Of a DNA stretch of 64,000 nucleotides, positions 5,455 through 64,000 are shown piece after piece. Position numbers and translations under genes: made by a program. The notes below the pieces were generated by a model. That model saw nothing but the letters and a program-made list of their open reading frames with translations, did not search any database and was not told the origin of the DNA. How positions within the stretch are numbered: the stretch's first letter is position 1; each line of letters begins with the position of its first letter. The stretch lies in the NCBI GenBank assembly GCA_946699065.1, contig CAMPDV010000270.1:186001-250000 (forward strand), in the 5' to 3' direction. This DNA is from Loxodes magnus. Lineage: Eukaryota > Ciliophora > Karyorelictea > Loxodida > Loxodidae.

Positions 5455-5825
5455 TATTATTTCTTGCAACACAATCTCGAGACATTGTAGTTTCCAAATG
5501 GGAACTTTTTGTAAATTCCAAGTTCTTGGATCTTGGTTAAATTATCACATTCTGTTAAATTAGATATCAGAATAGTAAATCAAAAATAATGGAACTTCTC
5601 TTTGTCTTTTCTTCTACTTCTTGAACCTACTGCCTTGTTAATCACCATGGAAAGGCATAGATATGATTGAAAAAAGAGCTTTAGACTAAGAGTCCACATC
5701 AGATTAACCTTCTCTCTAGTGATACCCCGAATAAGTTAGACATCTCCCATTAGGTCCCTTCTACACTTATCCGTTGCATTATCCTGATGAAAACCCTACC
5801 GACAGTGGTCGTCATCCATATTTAA
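5455..5825. other. GC-island in repeat R1, possible structured RNA or SINE-like segment
   Basis: Local G+C is about 40%, against about 20% around it. The island is conserved in R3 (42240-42610). It shares short landmarks with the island at 30414-30745: TCCAAATGGG near the start, AAGTTAGRCAT and ACTTATCC in the middle, and ATCCAT at the end. The minus strand contains a long frame starting ATGGATGACGACCAC, but under this code almost every frame is open, so I do not call a gene. A dispersed short retroelement or a structured RNA are the main alternatives. No clear A/B boxes were found. Confidence 0.45.
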
Positions 5826-6714
5826 TATATATTATCTAAGAAAATAATAAAAAAAATTAAATTTCTAATAAGTAAAAATAAATAATAAGTTGTAAAATCA
5901 GTATAAGTAGATTAGAAAGAAAAACTTATCTTCAAATTTTGTAAATTCATTTGGACGTATCAATCTTTGAAATCTACTTAGAAGATAATTTAATTGAAAT
6001 TACTATAAGAGTAATAACAATTATAAATAATATTCATTTTTGTTTCATCTATAAAATACAATAGGAGAAAGCGAAAATATTTAAACTATTGAAGTTATTA
6101 CTCTCTGTTTTTAAATTATGCCAAATTTAAAAGTTAATTGGATAAAATTTGTACATCACCTATCAAGATGAATGGTGACAAAGGAATTTTAGCAAAGTGA
6201 ATTTTTAAACTTATTTTTATCAATATTTCTCAATTTCAAATAAATAAAAGAAAGTTTTTCAAATGAGAGATTTAAATCAGTGCTAATAATTAAATTAAAA
6301 TTTTGAATGCTAATAGAATGAAATGATAAAACTATTAATAATCTTAATAGAAAAATTAAGTTTAGTTTTGTAAGATTAATAAATTAAGTTCTATAAATTT
6401 TCTATATAATCATTAATTTAAAATTTAATTAAAATTAATAAATCTAAATATAAGCTTATCTATTTGATTATTTTGAAATCTAAAATTAAACAGAAAATTA
6501 AATATTGTACATTTTTTAATTAATCATATAAAATAAAAAAATAGACTACTCGCAATTTTTACATCATACAAAATTCTAATCTAGTTTCGTTTAAAATATC
6601 ATACTTTATATTAAGATGATCCATTAGAAAAAAATTTAAAATTTTTCTGTATTCAAATAAATTTTATTATTGACTAGCTTTATTTAAATTTAAATTTAAC
6701 AAAAAAATTTGTGG

Positions 6715-6782: not shown

Positions 6783-9700
6783 TCAAGTTTATTGCTCTTC
6801 AGAACTAATTTTCTAGTTTAGGTTTTTTTTTTCTTCTAAGTATTTCCTTTCTTGTTCATTTTCAAGCTAACTTTCATTTTTTTCTATTTTCTGTTGTCAA
6901 TCTTCTTCTTCTTCATCTTCACTATCGTTTTCCTCTTCGTTCCAATCTTCTTCTTCCTCATCATTTTACATCTAATTTTGTTGGACATCTTATTCTTTGT
7001 TTTCTTGTTTTTATTATTCTTCATTCTCTTCATTAAAATTTTCTATTCTTAGATTTGCTTCTTTTTATTATTTCTCGTATTGCTCTTCTTCTTTCTCTTG
7101 TTATAGAATTTCTCGCCTCCTTTTAATAAACATTTGAATGAATATTTTTATTTATTCATCCACCATTTCTATTTTTTTTCTTAGGAAAAGAGTTTATATA
7201 TAGTTAATCGTAACTTATTAGTTTCAAAATATCACATTAACCAATTTTGGAGACTAATCATTCTCTTATATCAATGTAATATATACATTCCATTACATGT
7301 TGGAGAGTGTCATATTCTCCGCATATACAAAAAGGGTTTTCAATAATATAATTTCGATCTTTCAGAGTCTTTCGAAATGCGTAAGACTGGCTTCTAATCT
7401 TATAGATACAAATTATTTCTTTCAAATATTTTTTGTTTAATTTCGTGTATGTTATTTTGGGGAATTATCTTAGGTTTTAAAATTGTTCTGTATATATTTA
7501 TGCAGTAGGCATTCTGCTGAATCTTGAAAGAGCTAATTCAAAATATGTCTTTTATATTTATGTCTACACATATTTACTGAATTAAATTAAGTTGTTATTG
7601 TGCTCTTTATTATCAATTTCTATTTTATAAAATGAGGCCAGTTTCTAAACTTCATCATAATATTGATATCCCTCTTTATAATTATTCTCAAACAATATTC
7701 CAATAGATGATTAAGGTTGATTTTAGCTTTCATTTCTAATCTTAAAGAAAAACCTGAAATACTTAAGAGCCATCATGTGTTTGAATGGCATCCAATTGAG
7801 GTCTACAAAGCATGATTCATTAAACGTATTTCCTGCTGATTAGAAGGCTTTTCTGGCTATTAATCTCATGCTCTTTTCAATTCTGTTCAAGATTCCATTT
7901 ATTCCATACTGCACAGTCCAAGGTATTAAGTCCCCACCGTATTCTGCTTTAGGAAGCGTGAACAGTCTACAAAGCATTTTGAAATTTCAAGGTGTTACGT
8001 TTCTATATCTTGATAATGCAAATACTGCCTTTTTAATTGCTGAAAGATAGTTTGCAGCAACGTATTTGCAATGGTTAATTAGATTCTTCTTTTGGTGAAG
8101 GATCACCCCTAAATATGTGACTTGCTGTTTCTAAATTATTGCTTGGTCTCCTATTTTTAAGTCTAGTTTTGTTTCTTTGCTTTTCTTTTTAAAAACTATA
8201 ACGTTTCGCATTTGGAGACATTTATTTTAAGAAATGTCTAATTGAAAATGGAGTTTGCTTCATTAATAAGTGACTACATATTTTTTTATGAGTTCGATAA
8301 TAGTATTAAATCGTCAGCTCAACCTCTACAAGTGAACCTATTCTTAAAATTAGCACATCTGAATCCTAATATTTCTCCTTTGTTTTCTATATGTCTAATG
8401 ACAATGTCATAGTATAATAATGCAAGCACAGGTCCATGCGAACTTCCTTACATCACTCCATTGCTAAATTTCAATTTCTTAGAATTTGTTCCGTCTATAA
8501 TAAAGGAAGTAGTTAAGTTATTATAAAATGATTCTAAAGCCAAGATGAGACCTAGTGGTAATTTGACTCTTCTTAGTTATTTAAAAAGAATTCTTCTTTC
8601 AATAGAATCAAGCATTTTCTCTACGTCAATTAAAGTTGCAATCAGTTTAGTTTTTCCTTTCGCTTGTTTTCGATAAAGATCTATGATTTATTGGATCACT
8701 CATATTTATTAGGTGGTTTATTTGTTCTTCATAAACCCCATTTAGCTTGAGTGGATTAACTGTCTTTCATAAATTATTGAGTAGAGTCTCTTCGTAAGGG
8801 CCTTATCATATAATTTCAAAATAGTATTGATAAGGGAAATAGGGCGTCAGTTTTTTCAATCGTCTTTACTTCCTTTTTTGAAAATGGGGATTATGATAGA
8901 AGTATTAAGCTCTTCAGGAATCCTTCCAATTCTAAGCATGTTATTTATAAAAGAATGAAGCATCAACGCTAGATAATATCCTGCATATTTTAGCAGTTCT
9001 CCTTTTATTCCATCTGGCCCTGCTGCTTTACCATTAGGAATTAGACTTATAAGTTAGATAATCTCTTCTATTGTAAAAGGATCGAAATTTTATAAGTAAA
9101 AAAAGGGTTAATTTTGAATTTCTATGTTATTTTCATAAATTGCATCTATTTTCTAGTTACTTAGTTCAATCTATTGGTTAGTTAAATTCGAATGCTTGCT
9201 AAATACCTAATTTTCCCATGCTTCTACAAATTAGTCCTTCAATTCCTTATTAAAGTTCATCAAATTTCTTTGTCTAGGGTTAAGTATTTTCTTTGCTTAA
9301 GAAAACATATCTTTTGTGGTTTCATTGAGGAGTAGGAATCTGTTTTTGGCCTTTTGTTTTTTAAATTTTCATAAATGATGCTAAAAGCTTTTTCATAATG
9401 TGTTCGCTCTTTAGTGAAGATCAATGATTTCTTAGTTATTCCTCCCTATATATGCTAAAGTTTCTTTGTACAATTAATTTGCTCTCTTTGCTTCGATATA
9501 TTTTTATGTGAGGTCCTTAGGAAGTCTATTATACTTCGGGTCTGGGATAAATGAGCCTAAAACTTAATCTGCATTGTTCTAAATGCAGTCTCTAATATAA
9601 GTGTATTAATCTTCTAAGTTATCTCTATCAATTAGGAAGAATACTTCTACTTAATCTTTGAATGAATTCTAATAGATAAATCTATCAATAGGATCCTACA

Positions 9701-12700
9701 GTCTACTTATTTTGTACTTTCTCACTTTTATTTTTTCAGTTTGAAGATGAGTATGGTATACAAATTCAACTGTGAATGGAATATGATCTGAAAATAAGCT
9801 ATAATTATGAACCTGAAAATTTCTAAATTAATTCATATTCAAGTGATTATTGATGACAATATAATCGTTGCAATACATATTTTTATTCCCTTTATGTAAA
9901 CATGTGTTCATATTTGCATCGTTTATTATTTCTAAATCGTTTTAGAGAATGAATTCTTAGAATCTATTTGTATTGTCATAGTTGTTAATAGGGTTATCCC
10001 CAAAGCCTTATAGTAGTGCGTTAAAATCTCCTAATAATATATGTGAGTTGTCAGGAAAAGAATTAAGGAATACATTTATATATTCATATGCTTCGTCTTT
10101 TATATTTTCACTCTTGCTGTTATCTGGCATGTAACAAGATGTTATGAATATATTATCTAGTTTGATTGTAACGAACCTCTCTTGAGCTAATTGTTATATG
10201 CTATTCTATTCCGTGCTATTAAGTTAATCTCTAACAATTAAGCAAACTCCTCCTCCTTTTCCTGAGTTCTTGAAATAGGTCCTATATCCATTAATAAGTA
10301 TTGGAGGATAGTCTTATTTTTATCACGTTTCATTAATTGAGAAAATGTCTAAGTCATTATTTCGTATAAATTCTTCCACGTTTAATTGCTTGCTTCCAAT
10401 TCCATTTATGTTAATATGTCCAAGCTTTATTATGCCTATCTCTCTTTGCTTATCGATAGGCATCTTTATTTCTTAATTCTCAAATTCTTGTTTGCATTAA
10501 TACGGTTATTCTACATTGTTCTCTACACCTCCTTTGAGTCTTAGTTATTTTTAAAGGACAATATAGTTAATTCTAAAATCAGTTTATAGCAGCGTTTTAA
10601 CTATATAATTTCCGTTTTTTATAAATCGATGAATTTCTTATGATGAAGTCAAAACTCCTCCTTTTATTCCTGGCTCATAAATACAGAGAATCTTCTCATT
10701 TTGACGAATTTATATGTTAAGCAATTTGGGGCAATTTTTGATATATTACCTGTAACTTATTATAATGAATAATGTCAATGAATCGTACTTTTCACTCAAT
10801 TTATTATCGATTTTTATATCTATTTCATTTCCATCACACGTAGCATGGTTTAGTTTGCAAGATAAAGTTATAAATCTATTGCCTACTAAAGTGAAAAGAT
10901 TCTAATTTCATCATTTATTGGACCTTATAAATTGAATTAGTTAGGCGTCTTTAAATTCGTATTTATTTAAAATCTCTTCAATATTTATTTCATTAAACCC
11001 AAATTTTGACTATTTTAAGTTTAAAGTGTCTTGGTTAAATTTGGCATCTCTTCAACTTCTCTTTCCAAATTTTGTTTGGCTATCCCAATTCATCACATAT
11101 GATGTCTAGATATTTGAATTTTCTAAAATTTCAATCTGCTAATCTTCTTAAATTTAATCACTTAAAAATGTTTATGTTGAAGCATTTCATTTTATTTCTT
11201 TCAAGTAAGATTGAGTTTTAACATCTTATTATTTTCTCTATATTTCTGAAATTTATGCATAGACATTTAGCTTCAATTCTACTTGATGCTCATAATCCTG
11301 CATGAGTTAAACATATAATCCGTTTAATTCATTATATTACTCTTACAGTTTTCCATTATTCTATTTTGTGATTTATAGTTCTTGTTAAGAAGCAACTAGC
11401 TAATGATTGGTAACTACTGTTATTGTTCCTTCATCCTTAGCATTGATAGAATTTTAAGTCTAAATAACCTAATTCTTTAACTCCATGATTCTTGTCTAAC
11501 TATAATTGCTTATTAATTTCCCTTTTTTTGTTCATGTTCAAGCATCTTTGCTATTAATTTTTAAACAGGTTTGTGTTTCCTTTTCTCAAAACTATTTTTA
11601 TTAACACGAGACAAGCCTTTAGTAGACACTCTATATATCTTAATTGATAAATTATTTGTTTAATTTATCATATAAATTCTACAACTTTGTATACTTCAAT
11701 TCAACGAAGTCGCACTAGGTAGATTGATCTAAGAATAATAAGTCTGTACCAGTAGTTAAATCTAAAGTCGATATAGTTGCTTGAGAAATTTAGTTGCTGA
11801 ATTGAATTTCAATTTATGTTTATTCATTCTATGCCTGAGGAGTGATTGTTTATGTAAAAATGCTTTTGACTGATTTGGCATATTTATTTTTTTGAAAGCT
11901 CAGTTCCTATGATATTTAATAATTCTCATTTTGTAATAATTAACACTAAGCTTGTTGTTACTAGCAATTGACTGTGAGTGAATGTACCTTTTAGTCGATC
12001 TGATCTATTTTGCTTAATAAATGAAAATTTTCACCTTTGAGATTTTAGTTAAGAGTTTCTACCTCCCTAAGATGTTATTATACTTCATTATGTCTCAAAT
12101 TACATTTACTCAATTCAGCTTGAATGAATTAAATTTGAGTAACCAAGTTGTTTATAATATTTTGGGCTTCTTACTTGGAAGCAAGTATTGCCTCATCTTG
12201 TAGTTTAAATGATAGTGTCATGTTCATTAGCTCCTCACTAAGCATAGCTTGTTTTACTATACTTTGCTATTAAGTCTAAGTGAGAAGTTAACTCTAAGTA
12301 ACCAATTCTTATATTTAAGTTAAAGAAAGATCAGTATTCGTTTATATTGATTATTATTTATTTGTACCATTATTTACAAATTATTTGGACTAAAGCATTA
12401 ACTATTTCTACTAATTATCAAACCTTAAGATTTAATTTTTATTCTAGATTTTCTTAATTTACTTTTGAGCTTTAAATAAATAATTTTGGTATTATTCTAA
12501 GTGTATTTTATATTGTGATTTAATGTTTAAAGTTTCTTTATTGTGTTACTCATATATATGTATTAGCTTTTCTTACAGAGAATTATTTTTAGTTATGAGT
12601 TTTTAAATTCGAAATTTAAGATTTTTGCTTTCATTTATCCTTTAATTTTCAAAAGTATTTGCCTCTTCTATCTTGCTTTAAATTTTATATTTTAATTTTG

Positions 12701-13301
12701 CAATTTTTTCTTAAAGTTACGCATTTTAAATCTCAAGATCAGTTAAATATGTAATATCAAACTTCTCTTAGTAATCAGTTTAAATGTCTATTGAAATCTG
12801 CTATTGACTTTTTATGTTATTTTGTGTATTGAATTGTTGAATTTTTATAGTCTCTTATTAATTTTGTATTTAAATTTAATTTTAGTTTTTAATTAAAGAA
12901 ATATCTTAAATATCCTAAGTATCTAAAGTATCTTACTGTATATTGGATATTTTAGATACCATCGTAGAGGTTGAAGTAACAAGCTAGTCTTTTTACCTAT
13001 AAGTATATTTCCTATATTTGAGATTAGTCTTCAATTAATGTCCCCGTTTTAAAGAATTGCCAAGCTGTCTTAGTGGAATTCGAAGATATCTATTAATTTG
13101 GCATTAACTGCAGCTCTTTAGCAAATTTCTTAGTAATTTCATGATATTATCAACGGATTTAAGTTGCAGCGATTCCATGTCTATTTCATAAAAGTAGTTG
13201 AGCATCTGCCTATGCTCATCGTTTTAGAAAGCAGCTTCTTTATTTTTAGATAAAGAAGAGTAGCTAAGAAAGAAATTTTGCGAATTTTAGTACATGTCCA
13301 T
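6783..13301 (-). CDS. LINE polyprotein: coiled coil, AP endonuclease, reverse transcriptase (two frameshifts)
   Basis: Read with UAR=Gln and UGA=Trp, one frame runs from ATG 13301-13299 for about 1,700 codons. Residues 1-960 are Gln-rich and largely coiled coil. The AP-type endonuclease starts near LGHININGIG (about 10410) and has SINETW, a Y-x-P-D-N-S motif, LLGDFN (about 10022) and SDHIPF (about 9782). Reverse transcriptase follows with GKAAGPDGIK, NWRPISLIN, IDVEKMLDSI, GVMQGSSHGP and GWADDLILLS (about 8300), where FxDD is WADD. A frameshift near 8165-8195 precedes QVTYLGVIL and the thumb region. A C-terminal Cys/His motif (CxC then H-x3-C, about 7260-7335) comes next. A second shift at an A8 run (about 7171-7178) leads to a basic segment and an acidic tail ending at UGA 6785-6783. 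Fusing the ORF1-like coil to the enzyme in a single frame is unusual. The shifts mean this copy is dead unless they are sequencing errors in homopolymers. Confidence 0.9.
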
Positions 13302-13860: not shown

Positions 13861-14589
13861 ATTTGAGTTAATTAATTATTCTAAAGATTTTATCATTTAA
13901 TAGAAAACTTTTATTATAAATATTACACTTTTATAAACATAATCTTTTCAATGAGATTACCATATAAGAATTTAAAAAGTGATGAAGATTAAAAATTAAA
14001 ATATTAGAAAAATAACAAAATTTTGGTTAAAATATTATTGATTAATTGATAAAACTTATACTAATTTAAATAAATAATTAGCTTTTTTCTAATAGATTAA
14101 TTGCTATATAATAAAATTATAAATTTTACAAAAGTTTTAAAAAAAGGATAAAATAATTGAAGCTTAAAATTAAAAAATTTTATAGTAAAAAATTAAAATT
14201 TTGTCACTCAAAAAGTTTTGTTCATACTAAATCTAAAAATGTATAAGAAAAAATATAAAAATTAGATTTTATTTTAAAATAATAACTTTTATAAAATATT
14301 CCGATTTTATTTTTATATTAAATAAGTTAAAATATTAAAATTTTTCCATTTTATTAAACAAAAAATTATTCTTTTTTTATGTTAATTTAGATAGTTTTTG
14401 ATAGTTTAAGCATTTTATTTTAAAATATCTTAATTTAAGAATTATTAATTTCTTATATTTTAGCTTTTATAATAGGCATTTATAATAGGTATTTATTTTT
14501 AGTGAAATTTTCAAATAAATACTATTGTTTTAAGAAAATTGAGTTTTTTATCAGTTTATAATTTAAATAAATAATTTAAAATATGGAAA
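13861..14589. other. AT-rich stretch, nothing recognised
   Basis: About 85-90% A+T with long poly-A/T words. No protein similarity or repeat match was seen on either strand. Confidence 0.5.
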
Positions 14590-15930
14590 GATTATTCTAA
14601 ATTAGTTTAGAGCTTTTTCATATAATTTCAATATAGTATTGATAAGTGAATTTGGACACCAATTTGTTCATTCATTTTTATTACCTTTTTTTAACATTGG
14701 AATATGAATGAATTGTTAAGCTCATCAGAAATTCTCCCAAGTCTTAGCATATTATTGAGAAAAGAGTGTAGTATCATTGTAAGATAATCTCCTGCATACT
14801 TCATTAACTATTCTTTAATTTCATCTGGACCTACTGCTTTAAAATTTGGAATTTCTTTTAAAGGGAAAAGTTCAAAATCTTATAAGTATGATAATGGTTA
14901 GCTATTAGTTTCTTAATTATTTTTAAATATTTAATTTATTTTTTGGTTACTAAAGTCAATCTATTATTATGTCAAGTTTAAATGTTTGTTAAACACTAAA
15001 TTTCTCAAGAATTAACAAAATTTTATGATTCTCTTGGTTAAAATTCCTTTTATTTCTTTGTCTAGGATTAAGAATTTTTTTAAATTGTGAAAAAATATCT
15101 TTATGATTTTCATTGAGAATTTTTTATTTTTTATTTGCTTTATTTTTCTTAAACTTTCAAAGGAGGTGTTTAAAATTTTTCCAACAGCTTGCAGCTTTAT
15201 TATGAGGGTTAATGATTTATTAAGTGATTCTCCCAAACTAAACATGAGTTTCTTTATATATTTAATTATCTCTTTTAGCTTCAATATACATTTTTGTGAG
15301 ATATTTTGTAAGTTTATTATATTTAGGATCTGTAATAAATGAGCCTAATGTTTTGTCTGCATTATCTAAAATGTTGTGTTTAATACATTAGTATTAATCC
15401 TCTAAATTATCTCTATCAATTTGAAAAAATTCTTAATAAGTTTAAAATAATTCCTAATATTTCTGTCTGTCAATTGGGTCTTACAGCATGTTAATTTTAT
15501 ATTTTTTTTAGGCAATTATGTCCTGATTGAAAATTGTATTTAAGAGAAAGTTTACCGTAATTGGTATATGATCAGTAAATAGTTAGTTATAGGGAACCTA
15601 GAAATTTGCAAATTGATTAATATTCAGGTGATTGTTTATTACAATATAGTCATTGCAATACATAAATCCTGTTCCTTTATGTATGCAAGTATTGCTCATC
15701 ATATCATTTACTATTCCAAGATCATTCTGAATAAGAAACTCCAAAAACCTAATCTTATTATCATAGTCATTTCTGGATTATTTCCATAATCTTACAAGAG
15801 AGCATTGAAATCTCCCGTCAGAATATGTGGGTTATTTTGGAATTAATTAAGTAGTATATTAATATAGTCATATGCTTAATCTTTCATAGTCTCATTTTAT
15901 AAATATTATCAATAATCTAATTAAATAAAC
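14590..15930 (-). pseudogene. LINE fragment: endonuclease C-terminal half and RT N-terminal half
   Basis: This is the minus-strand counterpart of 8795-10110 in the large LINE, in the same order. Recognisable pieces from right to left are ILTGDFNA (about 15800-15826), TDHIP (endonuclease catalytic His, about 15575), ILNPRQRN (about 15060), KAVGPDEI (about 14830) and EWTNWCPNSLI (about 14650). At the two tryptophans of the last motif the codons are UGA and UGG, whereas the larger LINE has UGA at both. Both ends of the element are missing, and several small indels disturb the frame. It is a doubly truncated, inactive copy. Confidence 0.8.
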
Positions 15931-20405: not shown

Positions 20406-22440
20406 AATAAGTTGAACAATAAGAGTAATACAAATTCAATGAAAAATGAAAAGTAGATATAGCCTCAAAGAGGCAAATAAAAAATAAAGCTATCAATTAT
20501 GAATAACGGAATATTTATTAAGAAGATAGATTAAAATCAAACAAATAAAAATGCTTAGTATGATATGGAAGAAAATTATAAATAAGATAAAAAATATAAC
20601 ATAAACTTGGTAAATTTTATAACATCAAGTTTTATAAACATTTTAATAGACTAAACCGTTGTGATATTATAAAATAGAAACTATTTAAATTTAATATTAT
20701 AATATTAATAAATTTAAAGATAAATTAGATGAAAATAATATATTATTTGATTGATAAAAAGATAATTAATAAATTAATAAATTTAATAAGGTTATTATAA
20801 AAAATTCATTAAAGATATAAAACTTTAATCAATTAATAGCACATGCTTTTCTTTATGCTCTTTTAATCTTCTATAATATATTTAGTATACATATTATATA
20901 CTTAATAAAATTTTAAATTATTGATTTTATTTAATTTAGTTTGCTTTAATACTGCTTTTCGTAAAGTTAGTTATATAAATTTTATTTTTATCTTTACGAT
21001 TGGATTTCGAATAGTCAGTAAATTTAATTTATAAATTTAAGAATTTTTATATTTTATATTTTTAAATTACTATTAATGACTGTATAAATTTTAAATCTTT
21101 TACCATAATAATCATTATGTTTCTTATAATCTTGAAAAATATTGCAAGAAAATTTACTAATTAAAGCAAATAAAAGCATTTTACTAATATTTAGAAACTT
21201 ATTAAGCAAGTTTAGTTAATATCTTCTAATTTATCTCTTTCAATTCTGTAAAATTTAAATTTGAAATCACTGAGAAAATCTCATAAAAAGTGTATAATTA
21301 TTTAATTTCTTATAGTAAAAATTTATAATTATTTTTAAAGATAACAATTTCAAAAGCTAATAAATAAGAAAAAATATAATAATTTCTAGTTCCCGATGAG
21401 AATAAAATTTACAAAATTTTGAATATTGAAAATAGAAAGCCAGTATTAATTTAATAAAAAGATAAGTAACTAAAAAATATCCTAAAATAAATGAAAAAAA
21501 ATTAAATAGTAAATAAATGCTTAAAACAGATAAAAAAATAAAATTAAAATTACTAGAATAATAGGTTATTCTGTTTTACTAATTTACTATTTTTTCACCT
21601 TTTATAAAGATAAAACAACTTAAATAAGAAATTTCTAGTTTTAAATAAAATAATATTAGTAAAATGAAAAATATATAGTGATTAAATAATAAGTGATTGA
21701 AATTTTTATAGGTTTCCTCAATCATTAATTTTTTTATTTATAGAATTAATTAAATATTTCAATTAGAATAAAGTAGCAATATTTAAAATTTGCATACATA
21801 AAATTTTCAAAATATCGACAATTCTAAAAAGTAGCAAATAATAATGTATTTTAAATATTTTAACATAAAATAGAATTAGTTAAAAATAAAAATACTAAAC
21901 AAAGTATTTTAAATATCTCTCAATAATTGTTACTTCAGACTTGATAATAAATAATAGAATTTTGATATTCTAGTAATTAGTATGTAATTGTTAAAAAATT
22001 TATTGCATTAAGTTAGGATTAAACAGACAATTATTAGAACTTCGACAAAGATCAAATTAATCTATTAAGGGTTAAACTCTCAATAATAACGGAGAATCTG
22101 TTATGTTATTGAGGAAAAACGAAAAACTCCAGTAAACTTTGAATTGGAGTTTATAGAAAAACTTAATAATACTACAGTATACTAATTAAACGAAATTTTT
22201 ATGAGTATAAAATATAAAATCTATAATATTCAAGCCTAAAACTATAAAAGACTTATGATATTTGAGATAATAATTTATTTATTTATTAATTATAAACTTA
22301 AAAGGTTTCACTTTCAAGAGAAGGGAAACTTCTTTCCAGCAAAACGACCCAGGGAACTCTCTTATTGTAAGAAATGCAATTATCCTGTTGCTTAATTCAA
22401 TAAGCATCAGCCAAAGAGTTACATAACTAGACTCTCTTTT
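20406..22440 (+). repeat. Long dispersed repeat, copy R2 (partial)
   Basis: 20410-20620 matches 33610-33780, 20620-20800 matches 34652-34810, and 20800-21790 matches R3 34810-35825 and R1 1-1015. 21787-22440 matches the block found in R3 but missing from R1 (35830-36505), including the GC-richer segment at 22310-22440. Similarity to R3 stops at about 22436, followed by a LINE 3' fragment. It contains the unoccupied target TAACATCAA at 20620-20628 for the LINE insertion in R3. R2 looks more diverged from R1 and R3 than those two are from each other. Confidence 0.85.
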
Positions 22441-22589
22441 CATTAATATTTGGAAAAAAATTTTTATGACTATGATTAATTGTAGCTATTATCAGACCTT
22501 TACCATATCGATCGGAGAATATCTGAATAATACCAATCTTAAAACTTTTACTAAATAATAATAGAGACAAAATACAACAATATTTCTAT

Positions 22590-23187
22590 AATGCAGCTCT
22601 AAATAATTTATTACAATGAAAGCAGCTAAAATATATAATGAGCAATTAGGTAATCTTTAACAATTTCCACTAATTACTTATACGAAGTTAAACAAACAGT
22701 ATAGACAAGAATTTATCAGTATATAGAATCTCAGAATCTAATCCTATAATTTTCGTAAGAATCTTTAAGACCGTCATTATCATATTGATAATCCCTATTG
22801 TATGCGTGGAGAATATGAGACTTCCGAACATATCTTTAAATGTATATACTATTCTAATATAAGGGATTGACTATCGGAAAAGGTCGGGAATAATGACTTA
22901 AATCGTCTCATACTATATTATCAAGAATAAATAAACTAATTTTCAAGCTTTAAATTGGAGTATTTAGACTTATAAATCAAAATATTTCAAAATAAGCTAA
23001 TGCAATACTTGAGATTCTAGAAATGGAGTAAGCAAAAAAGGATGAATTTTAAGATGAGTAGAAAGAAGGAGAAATTAAAGATAAATGATGAGATTAAGAC
23101 AAGAATAAAAACATTAAAATATTTACTAGCGTCTATAATTGAAGGAAGCAATTCTTGCTTTTAAAGATGTCAAAAATGTCTTTTAGT
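22590..23187 (+). pseudogene. LINE 3'-end fragment, plus strand
   Basis: Plus-strand translation gives KLNKQYRQEFISIQNLRIQS, then DNPYCMRGEYETSEHIFKC near 22782-22838. These match KLNKKYLKEIICIYKIRSQS and NPFCICGEYDTLQHVMEC of the large LINE. The first Cys of the CxC pair is kept while the second is Arg here. The frame continues with RDWLSEK (W=UGA) and a basic C-terminus. Endonuclease and RT are absent, so the copy is 5'-truncated. Upstream, 22440-22590 probably belongs to it with a frameshift. Confidence 0.75.
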
Positions 23188-33787: not shown

Positions 33788-34651
33788 CTGGTGATTACTT
33801 TTTGAGTACTACATAACCATGAAACATTTAAATTTTTTACTTAAAATTATGATAAGAAACATAAACGAATCCTGACTCTAATATTGCTTTTTTATTTAAC
33901 AAAACAAAAATTGCTAATCTGAGATATTTTAAAAACCTGGAGAAAATAGATTAATATTCTGAAATAAATGTATAGAATATTGAAGATCGTAAAAAAATTT
34001 GAATAAACTTATAACACAATCATAGAATAGTTCTTTTAAGATGTTACAGAAAGAATGAGATCGATGTAAACTGCACATTATTACTTTGAAGATATTGATA
34101 AAGAAGCAAGATAATTTCCATATGATATATACACTAAATTAATTTATGATTAGAGAAATAATTTCTATTTACAATTTTGCTATTATTTCTAATAAAATTT
34201 AAAGCAAAGGCACTTCTAAATTAAGTTCTCTGAGATTTGCTTGTGTGAAGAATAAGATAGCTTCGTTCATATTTAATTATGCGAAGCTCTGTAAGACTTA
34301 ATTAAAGAATTTAAAAATAAAAAAAAAACGACTTATAGAAGATTCTAGCATATAATCAAAATACCTTACTCTTAATTCTCATACTTAAAAACAGTTAAAA
34401 GAAATAGATTTTAGAATTAAAACTTTCATTTAAAGTTGCTGAGAAAATAATTGAAATACTATAGTGAAATGAGATTTACTACAATGGTAGAATGATCTGG
34501 ATAAATTGAAGTAGTAGAAGAAAAAGAACATGAGCAATAAGTAAATTAGAACTTATTAATAATATGCAAATAAACAGTTTTATTACCTAAATGAAAATAT
34601 AATAAAGACATATTAGTTTATATTATTATTATATAGAACTATAAAATTGTA
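33788..34651 (+). mobile_element. 5'-truncated LINE insertion with target duplication
   Basis: Absent from the equivalent place in R2. Flanks are TAACATCAA (33779-33787) and TAATATCAA (34652-34660), and R2 has a single TAACATCAA at 20620-20628. The plus strand encodes the LINE C-terminal region: ETQTNPDSNIAFLFNKTKI (compare ETQLQPDSDISFLFNRSKS in the right-hand LINE). After a frameshift near 34010 it continues with VTERMRSMQTAHYYFEDI and FSEICLCEEQDSFVHIQLC (Cys/His motif), then an acidic tail (GQIEVVEEKEHEQQ). It retains only post-RT sequence, so it was dead on arrival. The 9-bp duplication has one mismatch. Confidence 0.8.
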
Positions 34652-47108: not shown

Positions 47109-50100
47109 TCATCATTCCAATCCAAAATTAAAATCTTCTATATCTTTCTCTAGTTCCTGCTCTTTACTTTCTACTTCTTTTTCATCTATATAAATATTAA
47201 TTTTTCAAAAAAGTGTCTTTATATTCATTAGATGCAACTCTAAACTATAATCACATCTACTAACCTTCAATATTTTGAGATTTCTTCAAATCTTATAAGA
47301 ATTGTTGTTTTAGTCTCTAATTGGAAGATCATTTTTTGTAATACCATCGATCTAGTGTAACTCTAGTTACTTTAGCTTGGTACATTTAAAAATCACTTAA
47401 GTGATACTTTTCTTTATATCAACATCGTGCAGTTTCAAACTTTTTAAGCTTTAGATTCCTACTATTTCATTAACAACCTCTTCATTTCATTAAGCTATCT
47501 AGCCTAGTTTTAAAGATTTTAAATGTAAGCAATTTTATTTGATGGTCAAGATAGTTTCATTACTAACCTCTTACACGTTAGAAAGTTCTATTATTTTAAT
47601 TTTCTTGCATTACTAGAGAATGATTCTTATGGTATCATCTAGTAACTAAGGTAGATCAATTAAGCACAATTATTCTAATTTCTAGCAATTATTACTTATT
47701 TATTATAGAGATGCATTGCCAAGTCACGGTAGTTTCTTTAAGCATATTGATTGCAGGCTATGGGGCTTGTCTATTAGAAGAGTTAAAGCTTAATCATCAA
47801 AAAATTAACAGTTGATAATACTTATTTCCTTAAGGTTAAAATAATTCTATTACATCAAATTGCTAAACTGATCCAAACCAAAATTTCCATTCAAATTCAA
47901 GCTATTTAAATGAAACCCTTTTGTCTTATCCAATATCTAATCACTAGAGTTATTAAATTCGAAGCTCAGTTTCTTCAACTTAGGACAATATCTAATAAAC
48001 TAATGAAAATGCTCATTCTAGTTAATCTAAATCTCCTCAATGTTACTCCCATATACTTTTAGGTATTATTTAATAGCCTTTGTTTCCAATATTTAGCTAC
48101 TAAGTTTTAGGACTCTAATCTTCATATTCTAACAATAGTTCTACAAAAACACGCCTGTAAAGGCTTTACCTTCATTATGCTAATATTCTTGTGAGCAATT
48201 AGTCACTTCTAATTTTATTAGACTATAGCATGTCTTCAGAAACTCTAAGTCACTATCGTTATACATTCCTATCATAACTAGCACTCTCAAATTTTTCAGG
48301 GGAAACATATCATGGATAACAAACTGCTTATTATAAGTATATAGAAAGAGTTCTTATAGACTGTTCTGCTTCTTTTACTCCTAGATAAGGTATTAGTTAA
48401 ACAAAAGGCTTTTATATAGCATCATGTGTAGCTTGTTAAGAAATATTTGGGATAGATTTTTAGCGTCGATAGTCAATCTTTAGACAAAAGAGCGATTAAA
48501 TAGATTAATTAGTCATTAGAGTTTATTGGTGAAAGTTTCTTAGCTTAGATGCATTTTCTTTATAGTAATTTTATTTAAAAAATGCACAGTATAGTAAAAA
48601 ATTTTGCTTGTAGTTTGAAGTTAAACGATATCTCTTAGAGTCAGAAATTCGAATATTAGTTTCATTACATTTTTATTTCCGAAAAAACGAAGCAATTGTA
48701 GTTAGTCAAGGTGATTACTATTAGGTAAGGAAGAATTTTAAAAGTCTTATTCAGGGAAAAGGCCTTCATAGGAGAAATTTCCATTATAGGAAAAACGAAA
48801 ATTATTTTAAACGTATTTATGTGATTTTGTGAGCTGATTTTTAAGGAAAAGGCTATGAAATTATTCGCCTGTTTAATATTTAACAAAAGCTGTACCTGTT
48901 AAATCATCATTTTGTCAGTCACCATCAATTATATTTCCATTCCTATAAAATAAAATTCCTTTTCCTTCCCTTTTTCCATTCTAAAAATGTCCTTAATATT
49001 TGTTCCCGTTTTCGTATTTTACAAGTCCATATCCATTGTGAGGTAAATTATTTTTTCACTCTCCCTAAAATTTTTCTCCGTTTTTATAATATAATATTCC
49101 TTTTCCTTGTCTTTTTTCACTTTAAATTTCTCCTTCAAATTTATCTCCATTTTCGTAATTTATAATTCCCTAACCATTATGAAGTAAATCATTTTTTCAC
49201 TCTCCCTAAATTTTTTCTCCGTTTTTATAATATAAAATACCTTTTCCTTCTCTTTTTCCATTCTAAAATTAACCAGAATACTTATCTCCGTTTTTATAAA
49301 TAAAATTTCCATTCCCTTTTTGTTAATCGTTTTATCAATTTCCAATATATTTATTCCCATTTTTGCATTATAAAGTTCCTTAACCTTTTCTTTTTCCATT
49401 CTTAAATTATCCTTCATATTTATCTCCGTTTGAATACTTTAAGATACCTTAATCATTTTAAAGATCATTTTTTCAATCTCCATCATATTTATCTCCATTT
49501 ATAGACACTATAATTCCTTTTCCTTCTTTTTTTCCATTTTGAAACTAGCCTTCATATTTATCACCATTTTAATACTATCATTATCCATAACCACTTTGGA
49601 TATCATTTTACCATTTTCCTTTATAAATTTATCCATTTGTATAAGTTTAATTCCCTAATCCTTCTCTTTTACCATTTATAAAAACTCCTTCATAGATATC
49701 TCCATTTGAATATTTTAATTAACCTTTTCCATTTTGAACATCATTTTGTCACTCTCCGTCATAATTGTCTCCATTTAAACAAGTTAAAAATCCATGTCCT
49801 TCTCTTTTTCCATTCGAAAACTAGCCTTTATAGATATCACCATTTTAATATTTGTATTCACCATAGCCATTAATAGAGTCATTCAATCATTCACCATTAT
49901 ATTCTTCACCATTATTGTAAATTTGTTTTCCTTATCCTTTCTTTTTCCCATTTTTAAATATTCCAATATATTTATCTCCATTTTAAAACAATAATTATCC
50001 CTATCCATTTTGAAGATCTCTTTGTCATTCGCCTTCGTGGACATCTCCGTTCTAATAAATAAATTTAGCTTTTCCAATCCTTTGTCCATCTTAAAATTAT

Positions 50101-51692
50101 CCTTCATATTAATCTCCATTTTAATATTTAAATACTCCTAGTCCAGTATAAGGGAAATCATCTTTTCATTCTCCCTGAAATTTTCCTCCTTTTTAATAAC
50201 GTATTAAACCTTATCCTTATCTTTTTCCTATCATAAATTATCCTTCATAAACGTCTCCATTAAAATACTTATATTCACCTTTTCCATCTTGTTGATCATT
50301 ATATCAGTTACCTTTATAAACGTCACCATTTTAGTAACTACACTCTCCTTAGCCTTCCCTTTTTCCATTCGTAAATGTTCCTTAATATGAATCTCCTTTC
50401 TTATACTTTATTAATCCTTTACCACTTAAACAGACTTTTTATTTATATTCCTTTAATTGTGGTTTATTTTCAAACATAAATAAAATTTCTAACAACTGTG
50501 TTCTCTAAAATTATCCTTCGTACATATCTCCATTTTTCTTATAATAAATTCCTTAACCATTGTGATTATCATTTTATCACTCACCTTCATAAACATCTCC
50601 ATTTTAATATTTTTATACTCCTTATCCTTTCTTTTTTCCTTTCTCAAATGATCCTTGATATATATCTCCATTTCAATACTTCAATTATCCTTCTCCTTGC
50701 TGAAGATCACTTTATCACTCTCCTTCATAAATATCTCCATTTCCGTAAGTTAATGTACCTTATCCCTCCCTTTTTCCATTAGCAAATTAACCTTCGTATC
50801 TGTCTCCATTTTAGTAATTTATTACTCCTCAACCATTTTAAAGATCATTTTTCCAATCTCCATCATATTTATCTTCGTTTATAGACACTTAAATTCCTTT
50901 TCCTTCTTTTTTTCCATTTTTAAACTAGCCTTCATATATATCTTATAATAAGTATTATCATTATTCTTATTTATTTTGGTTCTCATATAGCCACTAATCT
51001 TCTAAATTACGTTCAGTTTCTGATGATTATACAGATAAATATTACTCCTCTATGGCATCAGCATTTAAAAATTATAAATATCCATATCCATCTTAATGGT
51101 CATTTTTTCATTCTCCATCATATATATCTCCATTTTAATATACTTAAATTCCTTTTCCTTATTTTTTTCCATTTTTAAACTAGCCTTCATATTTATCTCC
51201 GTTTTAGCATTACAAAATTCCTCATCCATCTTGAAAATTACTTTTCCATTTTCCTTCATATTTATCTCCATTTTATCATTCTTGCGTTCCTTTTCCTTCT
51301 TTTTACCCATTTATAAAATATCCTACATATTTATCTCCATTTTATCATTCTTGCGTTCCTTTTCCTTCTTTTTACCCATTTACAAAATATCCTTCATATT
51401 TATCTCCATTTTAGCATTATAAAATTCCTCTCCCATTATAAAGGTCATTTTTCCATTTTCCTTCATATTTGTCTCCATTTTTATATACTAGAGTTCCTTT
51501 TCCTTCTTTTTTCTCATTCTTGAGCAATCCTTCATATTTATCTCCGTTTTCATAATTAATAGCCTTCTAGATTCCTTATCCAAAGATACTTTTAAAGTCG
51601 ATTTCTGAAAGTTCTATAAGATTAATTAGTTAGTCTTCTTAAAAATCACTGTAATCTTCATCATAATAAAACTCTTGGTCTTCTTGAGACAT
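47109..51692 (-). CDS. MORN-repeat / F-box-like / leucine-rich-repeat protein
   Basis: A single uninterrupted frame runs from ATG 51692-51690 (MSQEDQEFYYDEDYSDFQ) to tandem UGA UGA at 47114-47109: 1,526 residues with UAR=Gln and internal UGA=Trp. Residues 1-38 are acidic. Residues 39-945 hold about 35-40 MORN units of about 23 aa (consensus NGDKYEG-W/F-KNGKREGKG), interrupted by a short linker near 212-250 and another near 400-420. Residues 1010-1042 look like an F-box (FEFLTLRDIVQLQTTSKIF). Residues 1100-1500 are leucine-rich repeats of the FBXL/AMN1 type (LKNLRVLVM, CPKLKKLSF, CLHLKSLKL). The C-terminus is acidic (EKDIEDFNFGLE). MORN arrays usually bind lipid or scaffold membrane and cytoskeletal structures; F-box/LRR proteins usually recruit substrates to SCF ubiquitin ligases. 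Function is inferred only. About 25 in-frame UGA and about 5 UGG encode Trp. No introns are needed. Confidence 0.9.
51265..51402 (-). repeat. Two near-identical adjacent MORN units (69 bp each)
   Basis: 51265-51333 and 51334-51402 differ at only a few bases, including the rare word ATCATTCTTGCGTTCC in both, whereas other neighbouring units differ widely. This indicates a recent tandem duplication or local gene conversion inside the array. Both encode W as UGA at the same place. Confidence 0.75.
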
Positions 51693-59107: not shown

Positions 59108-62100
59108 TCAGTTTTCTTGGTCAATATCTGATTCATATTCTTCTTCTTCTTCATCACCATTGGAACTTTCAAAGCTTTCATAATTCAATGTATCTTATAA
59201 AATTTCGTTATTTTACTCAAGAATTTGTTTTCTTCTTCTAAGTAGCTTTTTATGAAATTATTTTATTCTAAAATCAATATGTATTAGTTTTTTAAGGTTG
59301 GAAAATTTTGATTAAGATAAGTTTAATTATATGTCACAAGTTTGAGCAAATCATAGTTTTTGAAATCTTAAAATTCTTAAATCAAATCTTTTAGAGATTC
59401 ACATTGTTCAATATGTTAGATTGTATCTAATTATCCACAGTTGCAAAATTCTGAATGTTTTATTTCGTAATGTCTTTTCTTCAAATCATGCTGAAAATTG
59501 TAACTAAAAGTTCTTAGCTTGTAAATTGAAATTATTTCTCTTTTTTTGTTTTTGTTAATTGTTGTGTATGTGTAATAAGGAAATTTTTCAGTATCGTTTT
59601 TTATTTCTCCGAAATAGAAACTTGTTGTAGACATTTTACTCATCCGATTCACTGAGTCTTGATAAAATTTCTTTTGTAACTAAGTTTTCACCTCTTTGAT
59701 AAGTAATTAAGTTTCATTAGTATTTTCTAAATCTATTTAATAGTGTTTGGTCAACTTCTAAAGATTTTTAAAGTATTGCAAATTATCACTCTTAGATCTA
59801 TTAAAAAGAAAACTAATATCCGAATCAGGTTGTAATTAAGTTTCTGTTTTTATTTTGGTATAAAATTTTATGTATTTTGTTGTAATATAATATTCAAATG
59901 GTAACCAATTTAAATCTATAAAACATGATTCATTAAAGGTCGCATTCGGACTTTATAAGGCCTATCTTGCTACTTTTCTTTAGCTCGCATAAATATTATT
60001 TTTAATCTTTTTAATTCCTTGGATGATAGATCAAGGGATTACTTCTGAACCATATTCTACTTTTGGAAGAATAAAAGATCGAAAAATTTGTAAATAGTTT
60101 GAAGGTGTAATATTTTTATATTTAGAAAGTTACAAAATAGCGCCATTTACACATTATCTATATTTTAAATATATTTCATTGCAATGAGATTTATAGTATT
60201 CATGCTCATTAAATTTGTATCCTAAATATGTTATATTTTTAGATTTTTTAATCTCTATGTTATTCAAAGTAATTTTTAGGTTAGAATCATTTTATCTTTA
60301 ATTTTTCTTTAAGAAGCAGATGTACTCGCACTTATCTACATTAATAGTTAACTTTACTCATCTAAAAACTTTACAAGTTGCTTAAATCAATGCATTCATA
60401 TTCGTTTCATCTGAAAATAAGATTAAATCATCCGCCCAAGCCTTAGTAATAAATATTCGACCACATATTTTAAAACCACGCTTTTTTTAATAAGTTTCAA
60501 TATATCTTATTACAATATCATAAAAGATTATAGCAAGTATTGGTCCATGAGAACTCCCTTATAATACTCCGTTATTATAAAGTAAATTTCTAGATAAGGT
60601 CCCATCTAAAATAAATCTAACATCTAATTATTTATAAAAAGATTCAAAACTATTAATCAATGCTAAAGGAAGCTTTATTCTTCTTAAATGATCAAAAAGT
60701 AATCGCCTGTCAATTGTGTTAAACATCTTTTCTACATCTATAAGAGTAGTAATAAGTTGTTTCTTCTTTCCTCATCTTTTATGCAAATCAATAATTTGTT
60801 ATAAAGTCCATACGTGATGCATAGTTTAATTTTTTTTAAGAAATCCTTTTTATGAAGGATGTATAATTCTACGTTAATTAACATACTCATAAAGTCTCTA
60901 AGTTAATAGTTTGTCATAAATTTTTAGTATTATATTAATAAGAGCTATAGGTCTCCAGTTTTTTCAATCACTTTTTGAGCCTTTTTTGTATATAGGGAGA
61001 ATTCTTATCTACTTTAATTCATTAGGAATTCTTTATTCTCTTAATATATTATTCATAAACTTTCAAAGGATAATATGAAACTCTTTATTTGCATATTTAA
61101 TTAATTCTGCTTTAATACCATCAGCACCTGATGATTTATTATTAGCTAGTTTTTTTATTATTACTTAAACTTCATTAAAACTAAAGAGATATAATCCTTG
61201 CAGATAAGACTATTAATGCTTTTTAACAAAATCACAATTTTTAAAAATATTGTCGATTTTTTAATTGCATGCTTTTAATTCTTCCTAATTTATGTTATTA
61301 TGCTTATTAAAAACATTATTTTCTCAATTTTTTATGAATTGAGTGAAACCTTCCTAATCTAAATACATATTGTTACGCTTTTTTGGATTTAAGATTTTTC
61401 TTGCTTATTTAAACATTTTAGGTGGAGTTTTGTTCATTTCTTCTCTATTATTTTTAGCTTATTTTATTTTGAATTTTCAGTAATTTCTTTTATATCTATT
61501 GAATTTTTTAATTTTTTCTTAAGCTAATTTTATTACAATCTAATTTACTCTTCCTTCTTACTATAAAGCCTATTAGTAATCTTTTTGTGCTTATTTTGCG
61601 GCATTAAAACTTTAAATTAAGTTGGATGGTAATCTATTAAAATTGTTATTTTATCAAACTTATCCTAAAACATTATCTGCATTATTTATTAAAACATACT
61701 TAATGTAATTATACTGCTCATCTATATTATTTTCATTAATCATATCAAAAACAATTGAACATCCATCGAATTCAGCTTTGTAATAAGATCTTATTTCTAA
61801 ATTTTAAAGTTTATTAATCTTGAAATTAACTCTGGGAGCAAGTATCGGTATATTCCTGTTTATATTTGAGATATTTAAGTTAAATAATATCGGAAAATGA
61901 TCTGTATCAAGTGCACTAGTTTAAATAACTTAGAACTCAGTTATCTAGTTAATGTTAATATGATAGTTAGCAATAATATAATCATTGCAATATGTTTTAT
62001 TATTAACTCTACTTCTAAAAGTATCCAAATTTTAATTGTTTAATACTTGCATATCATAATCTTCAATGAATTTTAGCAGTCTCTAAGCATTGTCCTAAGA

Positions 62101-64000
62101 GTTTATTTAATTGTTGCTACCATATCCATGCAAAAGAGCGTTAAAATCACCCATTAGTATGAGTGCTTAATCTCCAACTTCTCTAAGTATTAATTCTAAG
62201 TTTGAGTAAGATTAATCTTTTATTATTAAAGACTTTTCATCAGTTGGCATATAACATGTAGCAAAATACATATCATTTACTTTTATAAGTAGAAATCTAT
62301 TATTTTATTAACCAAAATCCAATTCTATTTATTTCGAATCAAGTTCTTATTTAACAATAAAACAAACACCCCCTGCTCTTTAAGAGTCTTCACAATTTTT
62401 AAAGAAAGTTCTATACCCATAAATTGATATAGGAGTAAAATATTGATGCTGTCAAGTTTCATTAATAGAAAATATATCAATTTCTTATCGTTTAGTAAAT
62501 TATTCAATACTTAATTATTTTGTTTAGATCGAATTCATGTTACAATGTGCTAGTTTTAATTAGTTCTATTTTACTCCACCTTTAAGACCTGGATCATAGA
62601 TGCAAAGGAATTTTTAGTTATTGCTTATTTAAATGTGAAGTAATTTTGGTGCTTATAACATTGAGTTTCTGTAGTAAATAATAGTATATAAAGTTAACGT
62701 ATCATATTATTAAGATAGTTTTTGGTCTATTTTTATAGGAACTGAAATTCCATCACATGTAGCATAATCAAGTTCGCAAGATAACGTAATAAATCTGTTT
62801 TCGATAGTGGTTAAGAGATTTTAATTTTATCATTTTTTTTATCTTAAAAATTATACAAATTTTTCGTTTTTAAAGTTATATCTCTTTATAATTTCCTCAA
62901 TATCAAAATTAAATAATAGATTTCGTTATTTTAGATTTAATTTTTCTTGATTTAAGTGAGCATCTCTCCAGTTTCTCTTACCAAATATTATTAAATCAAC
63001 TGAATTAGAATCTTTATGAGAGGATTAATTATTTGTTGTTATAAAATTAGAAAAGTCTTATATTAAATTTTAACTTTCTCTCAAGTCATTATTATTAAAA
63101 TTAAGGGTTTGAGTTGCTACATCTCATTTTAATGCTTTTTAAAATTGCTGAACCTAAGATTTTTTTTAATTTTTTTAAAGTTATGATATCTCAGCATATG
63201 CATTTAATTTTAGCTCAAATTAGTGATCATGCTCCTTAATTAATTAAATATATTTAGTATTCAAATCATTATAAACTTGCTATAATTCTAAATTGATTTA
63301 TTTCGATTATTTACACTCCTAATAAAAATGATTTAGATGTTATTCAGTAATATTAGTCATTGTTTCATGATTATTCATAAACGTTTTTTATGTTTAGATT
63401 TATTTGTTCAATTATTAATTTGCTAGAGTTTAGCTATAATTTTCTAAAGTTATCTTATTATTTTGATCAGTTTATATATATTAGTTAGTTTATAATGATT
63501 TTATTTACATTTCTTGAAAAGTTTAGGTGTGATTATCAGAATATTATTTTTATTATTTGAAAGAGTTTCTTATTTATTGAGAATAGAATTAAATAGTATT
63601 TTAAATATCATTTTCTTTCTATAAGATTAAGCTCTCAATATTAATTTTATGTTATTATACCTACATTTAATATGCAGAAATTAATTAATTTGCCTATTAA
63701 TTTTATTCTTCCTAATTTTGTTCTAATTCTTAAATTTTATTTTTAAGTTAATAGCATTCATTATCTAATGATTAGATATGAGCTTGTTATAATGAGATTT
63801 TGTTCCTAGCTTCATTAAGATCAATTTATTGATATATTTGCTATGAATTTAAATCTTAAATATATAATTACAATTATTCTTATATTAAGTTCAAATCCTT
63901 TATTTACTAGTTTTTCATTTCAATTTGAGTAAATATTTAATTAGCTTAAAGTAAAGTTTAAGTTGAAGTATTTGTTTGCAATAATTCTTATTAAATTTGT
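59108..64000 (-). CDS. Second LINE polyprotein, 5' end outside window
   Basis: The minus-strand frame is open from the right window edge down to near 59300, with a frame change at an A6 run (about 59289-59294) before the acidic tail (GDEEEEEYESDIDQEN) and terminal UGA at 59110-59108. N-terminal Gln-rich coiled coil occupies 63200-64000. Then come KRNWRDA (W=UGG where the other LINE has UGA), SINETWQ (about 62450, W=UGA in both), LMGDFNA (about 62145), TDHFPIL (about 61895), SSGADGIKAELI (about 61115), DWKNWRPIALI (about 60960), IDVEKMFNTID (about 60730), NGVLQGSSHGP (about 60555), AWADDLILFSDE (about 60425), ITYLGY (about 60220) and the Cys/His motif CNCGQLDTIQHIEQC (about 59395-59440). It is diverged from the 6.7-13.3 kb copy but collinear with it, and apparently better preserved. 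Confidence 0.9.

What the first reader, a model, noticed from the sequence alone, without database searches (positions are those of the whole stretch)
6783..13301. All three standard stop codons are read as sense: UAA/UAG = Gln and UGA = Trp
Seen directly: RT motif G-V-x-Q-G-S uses TAA for its invariant Gln in two LINEs. In DWKNWRPI the two Trp codons are UGA,UGA (8845), UGA,UGG (60960) and UGA,UGG (14650) in three copies. GWADD is UGA at 8310 and UGG at 60430. GKR-W-RDA is UGA at 11060 and UGG at 62970. ETWQ is UGA in both. CWFC/CWYW is UGA versus UGG in the zinc-knuckle copies. Alternation of UGA and UGG at conserved Trp across diverged copies cannot be explained by shared decay. Known: this code (UAR=Gln, UGA=Trp or stop) is described for karyorelict ciliates, and a similar one for Condylostoma.
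Basis: partly seen in the sequence, partly recalled or inferred. Interest (0 to 1): 0.85.

Follow-up and report, generated by a model that had tools for sequence, protein, structure and literature searches.

The report
Ciliate reading all stops as sense

Summary
LINE retrotransposon copies on the minus strand (about 6.8-11.5, 14.6-15.9 and 59.2-64 kb) and a MORN-repeat gene (51,692-48,513, minus) are full of in-frame TAA, TAG and TGA. In codon alignments of seven LINE copies (5,956 pairs kept of 12,776) TGA exchanges with TGG 32.6 times more than expected, but with CGA 0.0 and with TAA 1.0 times. TAA exchanges with TAG, CAA and CAG 4.4-5.9 times more than expected, like the true synonyms CAA/CAG (5.7). 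Shared decay does not give this pattern. Host genes agree: 12 of 20 in-frame TGAs of the MORN gene fall in the repeat's aromatic column, dynein paralogs swap TGA and TGG, and eRF1 writes the Gln of GGQ as TAA. eRF1 ends on TGA, the MORN gene probably too. The assembly (705.73 Mb) matches the published Loxodes magnus macronuclear assembly (706 Mbp), for which this code (NCBI table 27) is in print. Right, and already known. Left open: LINE copy B is one frame of about 1,821 codons, as expected if stops work only near the mRNA end; copies of the other LINE group are too frameshifted to decide.

The parts
8202..11513 (-). LINE copy A, main frame: upstream domain, endonuclease and reverse transcriptase, with in-frame TAA, TAG and TGA
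   Evidence: Pfam with stops as X; alignment to copy B in one frame; LINE-1 ORF2p 1.7e-24
6790..8199 (-). LINE copy A, C-terminal part, in another frame than the first (decayed copy)
59187..64000 (-). LINE copy B, one frame up to the window's end and on to an ATG at window-equivalent 64,650 outside it; 11 in-frame TGA, final TGA codon starting at 59,187
14566..15921 (-). LINE copy C, partial, frameshifted
22403..22954 (+). fragment like the C-terminal part of copy A
   Evidence: 9e-33
34019..34321 (+). weak fragment like the C-terminal part of copy A
   Evidence: 8e-5
48513..51692 (-). host MORN-repeat gene: 1,059 codons with 76 TAA, 15 TAG, 20 TGA, 5 TGG; proposed stop TGA 48515-48513

Best explanation
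The window is nuclear DNA of a karyorelict ciliate, very probably Loxodes magnus, using NCBI table 27: UAA and UAG are glutamine; UGA is tryptophan inside genes and the only stop near the 3' end of the mRNA. LINEs and host genes share this code. Shown here: the amino-acid meaning of the codons (UAG less strongly than UAA and UGA), in LINEs and in host genes, and UGA at the end of eRF1. Inferred from published work: termination by nearness to the poly-A tail, and decoding of UGA by a near-cognate tRNA-Trp(CCA) instead of a UCA tRNA.
For: Codon exchange among 7 LINE copies, 5,956 pairs: TGA-TGG 23 seen / 0.71 expected, TGA-CGA 0 / 0.56, TGA-TAA 7 / 7.36, TAA-TAG 30 / 5.22, TAA-CAA 37 / 8.35, TAA-CAG 15 / 2.55, true synonyms CAA-CAG 6 / 1.06. 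MORN gene: 12 of 20 in-frame TGAs in the aromatic column of 33 repeats, 0 of 20,000 random placements reach that. Dynein: TGA opposite Trp at 2 of 3 (L079), 4 of 5 aligned (L081) and 6 of 8 (L082) sites; paralogs L079 and L080 swap TGA and TGG at 3 columns. eRF1: 9 of 20 in-frame TAA/TAG opposite Gln, background 19 of 425, among them the Gln of GGQ. Assembly size 705.73 Mb against 706 Mbp for the L. magnus MAC, with table 27 stated.
Against: Without the local-identity filter the BLOSUM62 vote was wrong or weak: TGA nearest Tyr with Trp fourth, TAA and TAG nearest Lys. With it TAG still leans to Lys and TAA is Gln by little over Lys (0.57 against 0.53). TGA-CCC is also enriched (4 seen, 0.47 expected), unexplained. 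8 of 20 MORN TGAs lie outside the column counted. The two intact tRNA-Trp(CCA) genes found have 5-bp anticodon stems by eye, not the 4-bp stem reported for Loxodes. No transcript or peptide was seen; the species rests on assembly size and content, not on a marker gene.
Confidence: 0.96

Rival explanations
1. Pseudogene decay: the LINE copies are dead and the stop codons are C-to-T and G-to-A mutations of CAA, CAG and TGG, meaning nothing.
For: Copies do carry frameshifts.
Against: TGA-CGA, an equal transition, is 0 seen / 0.56 expected and TGA-TAA 1.0-fold, while TAA-CAG, two steps apart, is 5.9-fold. Intact host genes carry the same codons: MORN, 45 of 46 dynein matches have at least one of the three codons and 32 of 46 have TGA, eRF1.
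Confidence: 0.01
2. Condylostoma-like code, in which UAA and UAG too can be stops near the mRNA end.
For: The sense meanings are the same (PMC4967479, passages); no transcript ends were available here.
Against: eRF1 and, by my reading, the MORN gene end on UGA; 2 of the last 20 MORN codons before it are TAA. The L. magnus paper calls UGA the only stop (passages). Only two genes were looked at here.
Confidence: 0.02
3. Blastocrithidia-like code: UAR = Glu, UGA = Trp.
For: TAA-GAA is slightly enriched, 39 seen / 23.8 expected; Glu is third choice in the vote.
Against: TAA-CAA 4.4-fold and TAA-CAG 5.9-fold against TAA-GAA 1.6-fold; eRF1 9 Gln against 2 Glu of 20.
Confidence: 0.01

Closest known systems
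Karyorelict nuclear code, NCBI table 27 (Parduczia, Swart 2016; Loxodes, Seah 2022 and 2024)
   Same: UAA, UAG = Gln; UGA = Trp or stop; very probably the same species and assembly
   Different: Nothing found that differs; the published 4-bp-stem tRNA-Trp(CCA) was not found here, but the search that could show it did not complete
Condylostoma magnum code (PMC4967479, passages)
   Same: All three codons have the same sense meanings; no tRNA-Trp(UCA) found there either
   Different: There all three codons also stop; here the two genes examined end on UGA
Blastocrithidia nonstop and Amoebophrya sp. Kv codes (abstract listing and passages)
   Same: All three stop codons carry sense
   Different: Blastocrithidia has UAR = Glu and UAA as stop; Amoebophrya is a dinoflagellate
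LINE families of L. magnus (rnd-1_family-27 and -19, PMC11441545 section 11)
   Same: Exo_endo_phos_2 and RVT_1, 5-6 kb, thousands of copies
   Different: Those sequences are not held here, so no match was tested

Membership tests
NCBI table 27 (karyorelict) code | UAA and UAG = Gln | tested here: met
   Exchange with CAA/CAG and each other; eRF1 9 of 20 opposite Gln. UAG alone: exchange fits, BLOSUM62 vote leans to Lys
NCBI table 27 (karyorelict) code | UGA = Trp inside genes | tested here: met
   TGA-TGG 32.6-fold; MORN 12 of 20; dynein 2 of 3, 4 of 5, 6 of 8
NCBI table 27 (karyorelict) code | UGA is the only stop | tested here: inconclusive
   eRF1 ends on UGA and MORN probably; two genes only
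NCBI table 27 (karyorelict) code | In-frame UGA depleted just before the stop | tested here: inconclusive
   None in the last 20 codons of MORN, none in eRF1, last one 282 codons before the end of LINE B; three genes
NCBI table 27 (karyorelict) code | Stop set by nearness to the poly-A tail | not testable with these tools
   needs transcripts
Condylostoma code | UAA and UAG also used as stops | tested here: inconclusive
   Not seen in the two genes examined
Blastocrithidia code | UAR = Glu | tested here: not met
   TAA-GAA 1.6-fold against TAA-CAG 5.9-fold
LINE (non-LTR retrotransposon) | Endonuclease and reverse transcriptase domains together | tested here: met
   Copies A and B, Pfam with stops as X; LINE-1 ORF2p over both domains

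The most novel reading that the evidence does not exclude
The code shapes transposon anatomy: because a stop works only near the mRNA end, a LINE here cannot close a first ORF far from its tail, so its gag-like part, endonuclease and reverse transcriptase must be one fused ORF. Copy B fits: one frame of about 1,821 codons with 11 in-frame UGA and one final UGA. In the other LINE group the zinc-knuckle and the first endonuclease motif share a frame in 2 of 5 copies (C614, C97) and not in 3 (C105, C117, C321); each of the five changes frame at least once further on, so they do not decide it.
Probability: 0.3. Interest if true: 0.5.

Novelty: already known. Interest (0 to 1): 0.15.

Why it matters
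[quoted passage not shown] The code, its stop rule and its likely tRNA are already in print for this genus, so the find itself adds little; the fused-LINE idea would be new if true.

Tried and rejected
Tried without result: a search for tRNA-Trp(UCA) by anticodon loop and T-arm gave 8 matches against 21 for the reversed control, so no support under that one pattern. A pattern with GGTA in the D-loop gave 3 matches for Trp: two are tRNA-Trp(CCA) by ARAGORN and Rfam (60.4 and 59.6 bits) with 5-bp stems by eye; the third scores below the cut-off. The 4-bp-stem tRNA reported for Loxodes was not seen; the pattern without the D-loop part, and the one for Gln(UUA/CUA), did not complete. The first broad tRNA pattern was flawed: of its 298 matches the 100 listed were mostly tRNA-Lys out of register. 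Substitution profiles of LINE pairs were blurred by indels. Pfam was first run on wrong frames and rerun. I first read the MORN region on the plus strand. Rejected: pseudogene decay; Glu for UAR.

Rows dropped: for the exchange counts 7 copies were used (A, B, C of the window; C910, C105, C614, C321), C97 and C117 left out as near-duplicates of C614; 33 alignments under 60% identity gave 12,776 codon pairs, some of them out-of-frame shadows; 5,956 with local identity of at least 0.4 were counted. Of four dynein loci fetched, three were compared with solved structures.

Full report
What was claimed. LINE copies and other genes in this window seem to read UAA and UAG as Gln and UGA as Trp.

What is there. 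The LINEs lie on the minus strand. With stops masked as X, copy A (11,513-8,202, then another frame to 6,790) gives Pfam RVT_1 at 5.3e-21 and two endonuclease families at about 1e-7 and matches LINE-1 ORF2p at 1.7e-24. Copy B (64,000-59,187 within the window) gives RVT_1 at 2.9e-22 and LINE-1 ORF2p at 6.5e-23. Copy C (15,921-14,566) and two fragments are partial.

Is it Gln and Trp, and more than decay? In A against B (1,026 aligned codons, 433 identical sense residues) the codons opposite TGA were TGA 10, Trp 5 and six others, once each (TGA-TGA pairs are counted from both sides); in the second stretch (364 codons) only 1 of 4 was Trp. I then aligned seven copies of two LINE groups: 33 alignments under 60% identity, 12,776 codon pairs. 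On all pairs a BLOSUM62 vote failed: TGA nearest Tyr with Trp fourth, TAA and TAG nearest Lys. With the 5,956 pairs in stretches of at least 40% local identity the vote gives TGA = Trp and, narrowly, TAA = Gln, while TAG leans to Lys (0.53 against 0.35 for Gln; 0.65 against 0.60 at a stricter filter). The exchange test is sharper. TGA-TGG: 23 seen, 0.71 expected. TGA-CGA, also one transition: 0 seen, 0.56 expected. TGA-TAA, both 'stops': 7 seen, 7.36 expected. TAA-TAG 30 against 5.22, TAA-CAA 37 against 8.35, TAA-CAG 15 against 2.55, TAG-CAA 8 against 2.16, TAG-CAG 2 against 0.66; true synonyms lie at the same level (CAA-CAG 6 against 1.06; GAA-GAG 40 against 6.50). So the codons behave as synonyms of Trp and Gln codons, not as a class of stops. 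One oddity: TGA-CCC, 4 seen against 0.47 expected.

Host genes. The MORN-repeat gene has its ATG at 51,692 and a proposed stop TGA at 48,515 (minus strand). It holds 76 TAA, 15 TAG, 20 TGA and 5 TGG in 1,059 codons. In 33 repeats found by their NGxxYxGx register the next column holds F 15, TGA 12, TGG 4, L 1, I 1. None of 20,000 random placements of the 20 TGAs put 12 or more there; the most was 5. The other 8 TGAs lie elsewhere; one of them (50,168) is the same column of a repeat that my pattern missed. Elsewhere in the genome the dynein heavy chain C-terminal family has 46 matches, which are exon pieces and not genes; 45 of 46 hold at least one of the three codons and 32 of 46 hold TGA. Of four loci fetched, three were compared with a solved dynein: TGA is opposite Trp at 2 of 3 sites (L079; the third opposite Gln), 4 of 5 aligned sites (L081; the fifth opposite Ser, two more outside the alignment) and 6 of 8 (L082; one opposite Ser, one in a poorly aligned stretch). 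The paralogs L079 and L080 swap TGA and TGG at three columns and share TGA at a fourth. eRF1 (two copies on contig C196) has TAA and TAG but no TGA in frame; within the aligned stretch of L009, 9 of 20 lie opposite Gln of human eRF1, where Gln is 19 of 425, among them the Gln of GGQ; the gene ends DPDEDFL-TGA, five codons after the alignment ends. Where human eRF1 has TASNIKS and YLCDNKF, this one reads RAQNIKS and FLCENTF; that these are stop-reading motifs is recalled knowledge.

Where it comes from and what is known. The window is part of contig C270 of an assembly of 705,730,643 bases. PMC11441545 (outline, passages and section 11 read) reports a Loxodes magnus macronuclear assembly of 706 Mbp, table 27 with UGA as Trp or stop by nearness to the poly-A tail, about 2,700 RVT_1 copies and LINE families of 5-6 kb. 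The search here had 3,403 RVT_1 candidates, 150 scored. I take the organism to be L. magnus from size and content; no marker gene was compared. PMC4967479 (passages) described the code for Parduczia and Condylostoma, with mass spectra for the latter. [quoted passage not shown] Seah 2022 was not held and is known to me only through these citations.

tRNAs. One pattern for tRNA-Trp(UCA) gave 8 matches against 21 for its reversed control: no support. Two intact tRNA-Trp(CCA) genes with 5-bp stems (by eye) were found. The searches that could show the 4-bp form and the Gln tRNAs did not complete.

What is left over. LINE copy B is open from an ATG at window-equivalent 64,650 (outside the window, same contig) to TGA at 59,187: about 1,821 codons in one frame with 11 in-frame TGAs, the last one 282 codons before the end. 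In a code whose stop works only near the tail, an ORF1 stop far upstream should not work, so fused LINEs are expected. The second LINE group has a zinc-knuckle motif upstream of the endonuclease; the two share a frame in 2 of 5 copies and not in 3, and each of the five changes frame at least once further on (C614, C97 and C105 inside the endonuclease), so this is open. One search for papers with 'ciliate', 'non-LTR retrotransposon' and 'stop codon reassignment' listed two papers, neither about this by title and abstract; I did not search further for the idea.

Verdict. Correct observation and correct reading, already published for what is very probably this organism.

Noticed in passing
G000 contigs C5131, C20, C406: Reverse transcriptase matches in tandem: every 2,532 bases on C5131 (six from 12904) and C20 (three from 2028), every 2,504 on C5131 (three from 5395), and about every 27.5 kb on C406 (three).
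   Followed up: no
G000 contigs C103, C78, C158: tRNA matches in tandem arrays: every 527 bases on C103, 1,753 on C78, 1,752 on C158. Six of the tRNA loci were scanned, all tRNA-Lys(TTT), one with a tRNA-Ala beside it.
   Followed up: partly
window 5500-6607 and contig C270 about 252,892-254,000: A repeat of at least 1.1 kb, 93-97% identical in all three frames, beside LINE A and upstream of LINE B; both ends of the comparison were cut, so it may be longer.
   Followed up: no
G000 C196:20094 and C196:54994 (L010, L009): Two eRF1 copies about 35 kb apart, differing by few residues, neither with an in-frame TGA before its end.
   Followed up: partly
C105 4537, C614 4530, C97 4533 (strings): The endonuclease GDFN motif reads GD[TGA]N, a Trp in place of Phe, in three copies of the second LINE group.
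   Followed up: no
window 48,513-48,900, minus strand: The C-terminal end of the MORN gene looks F-box-like to me by eye; not tested.
   Followed up: no
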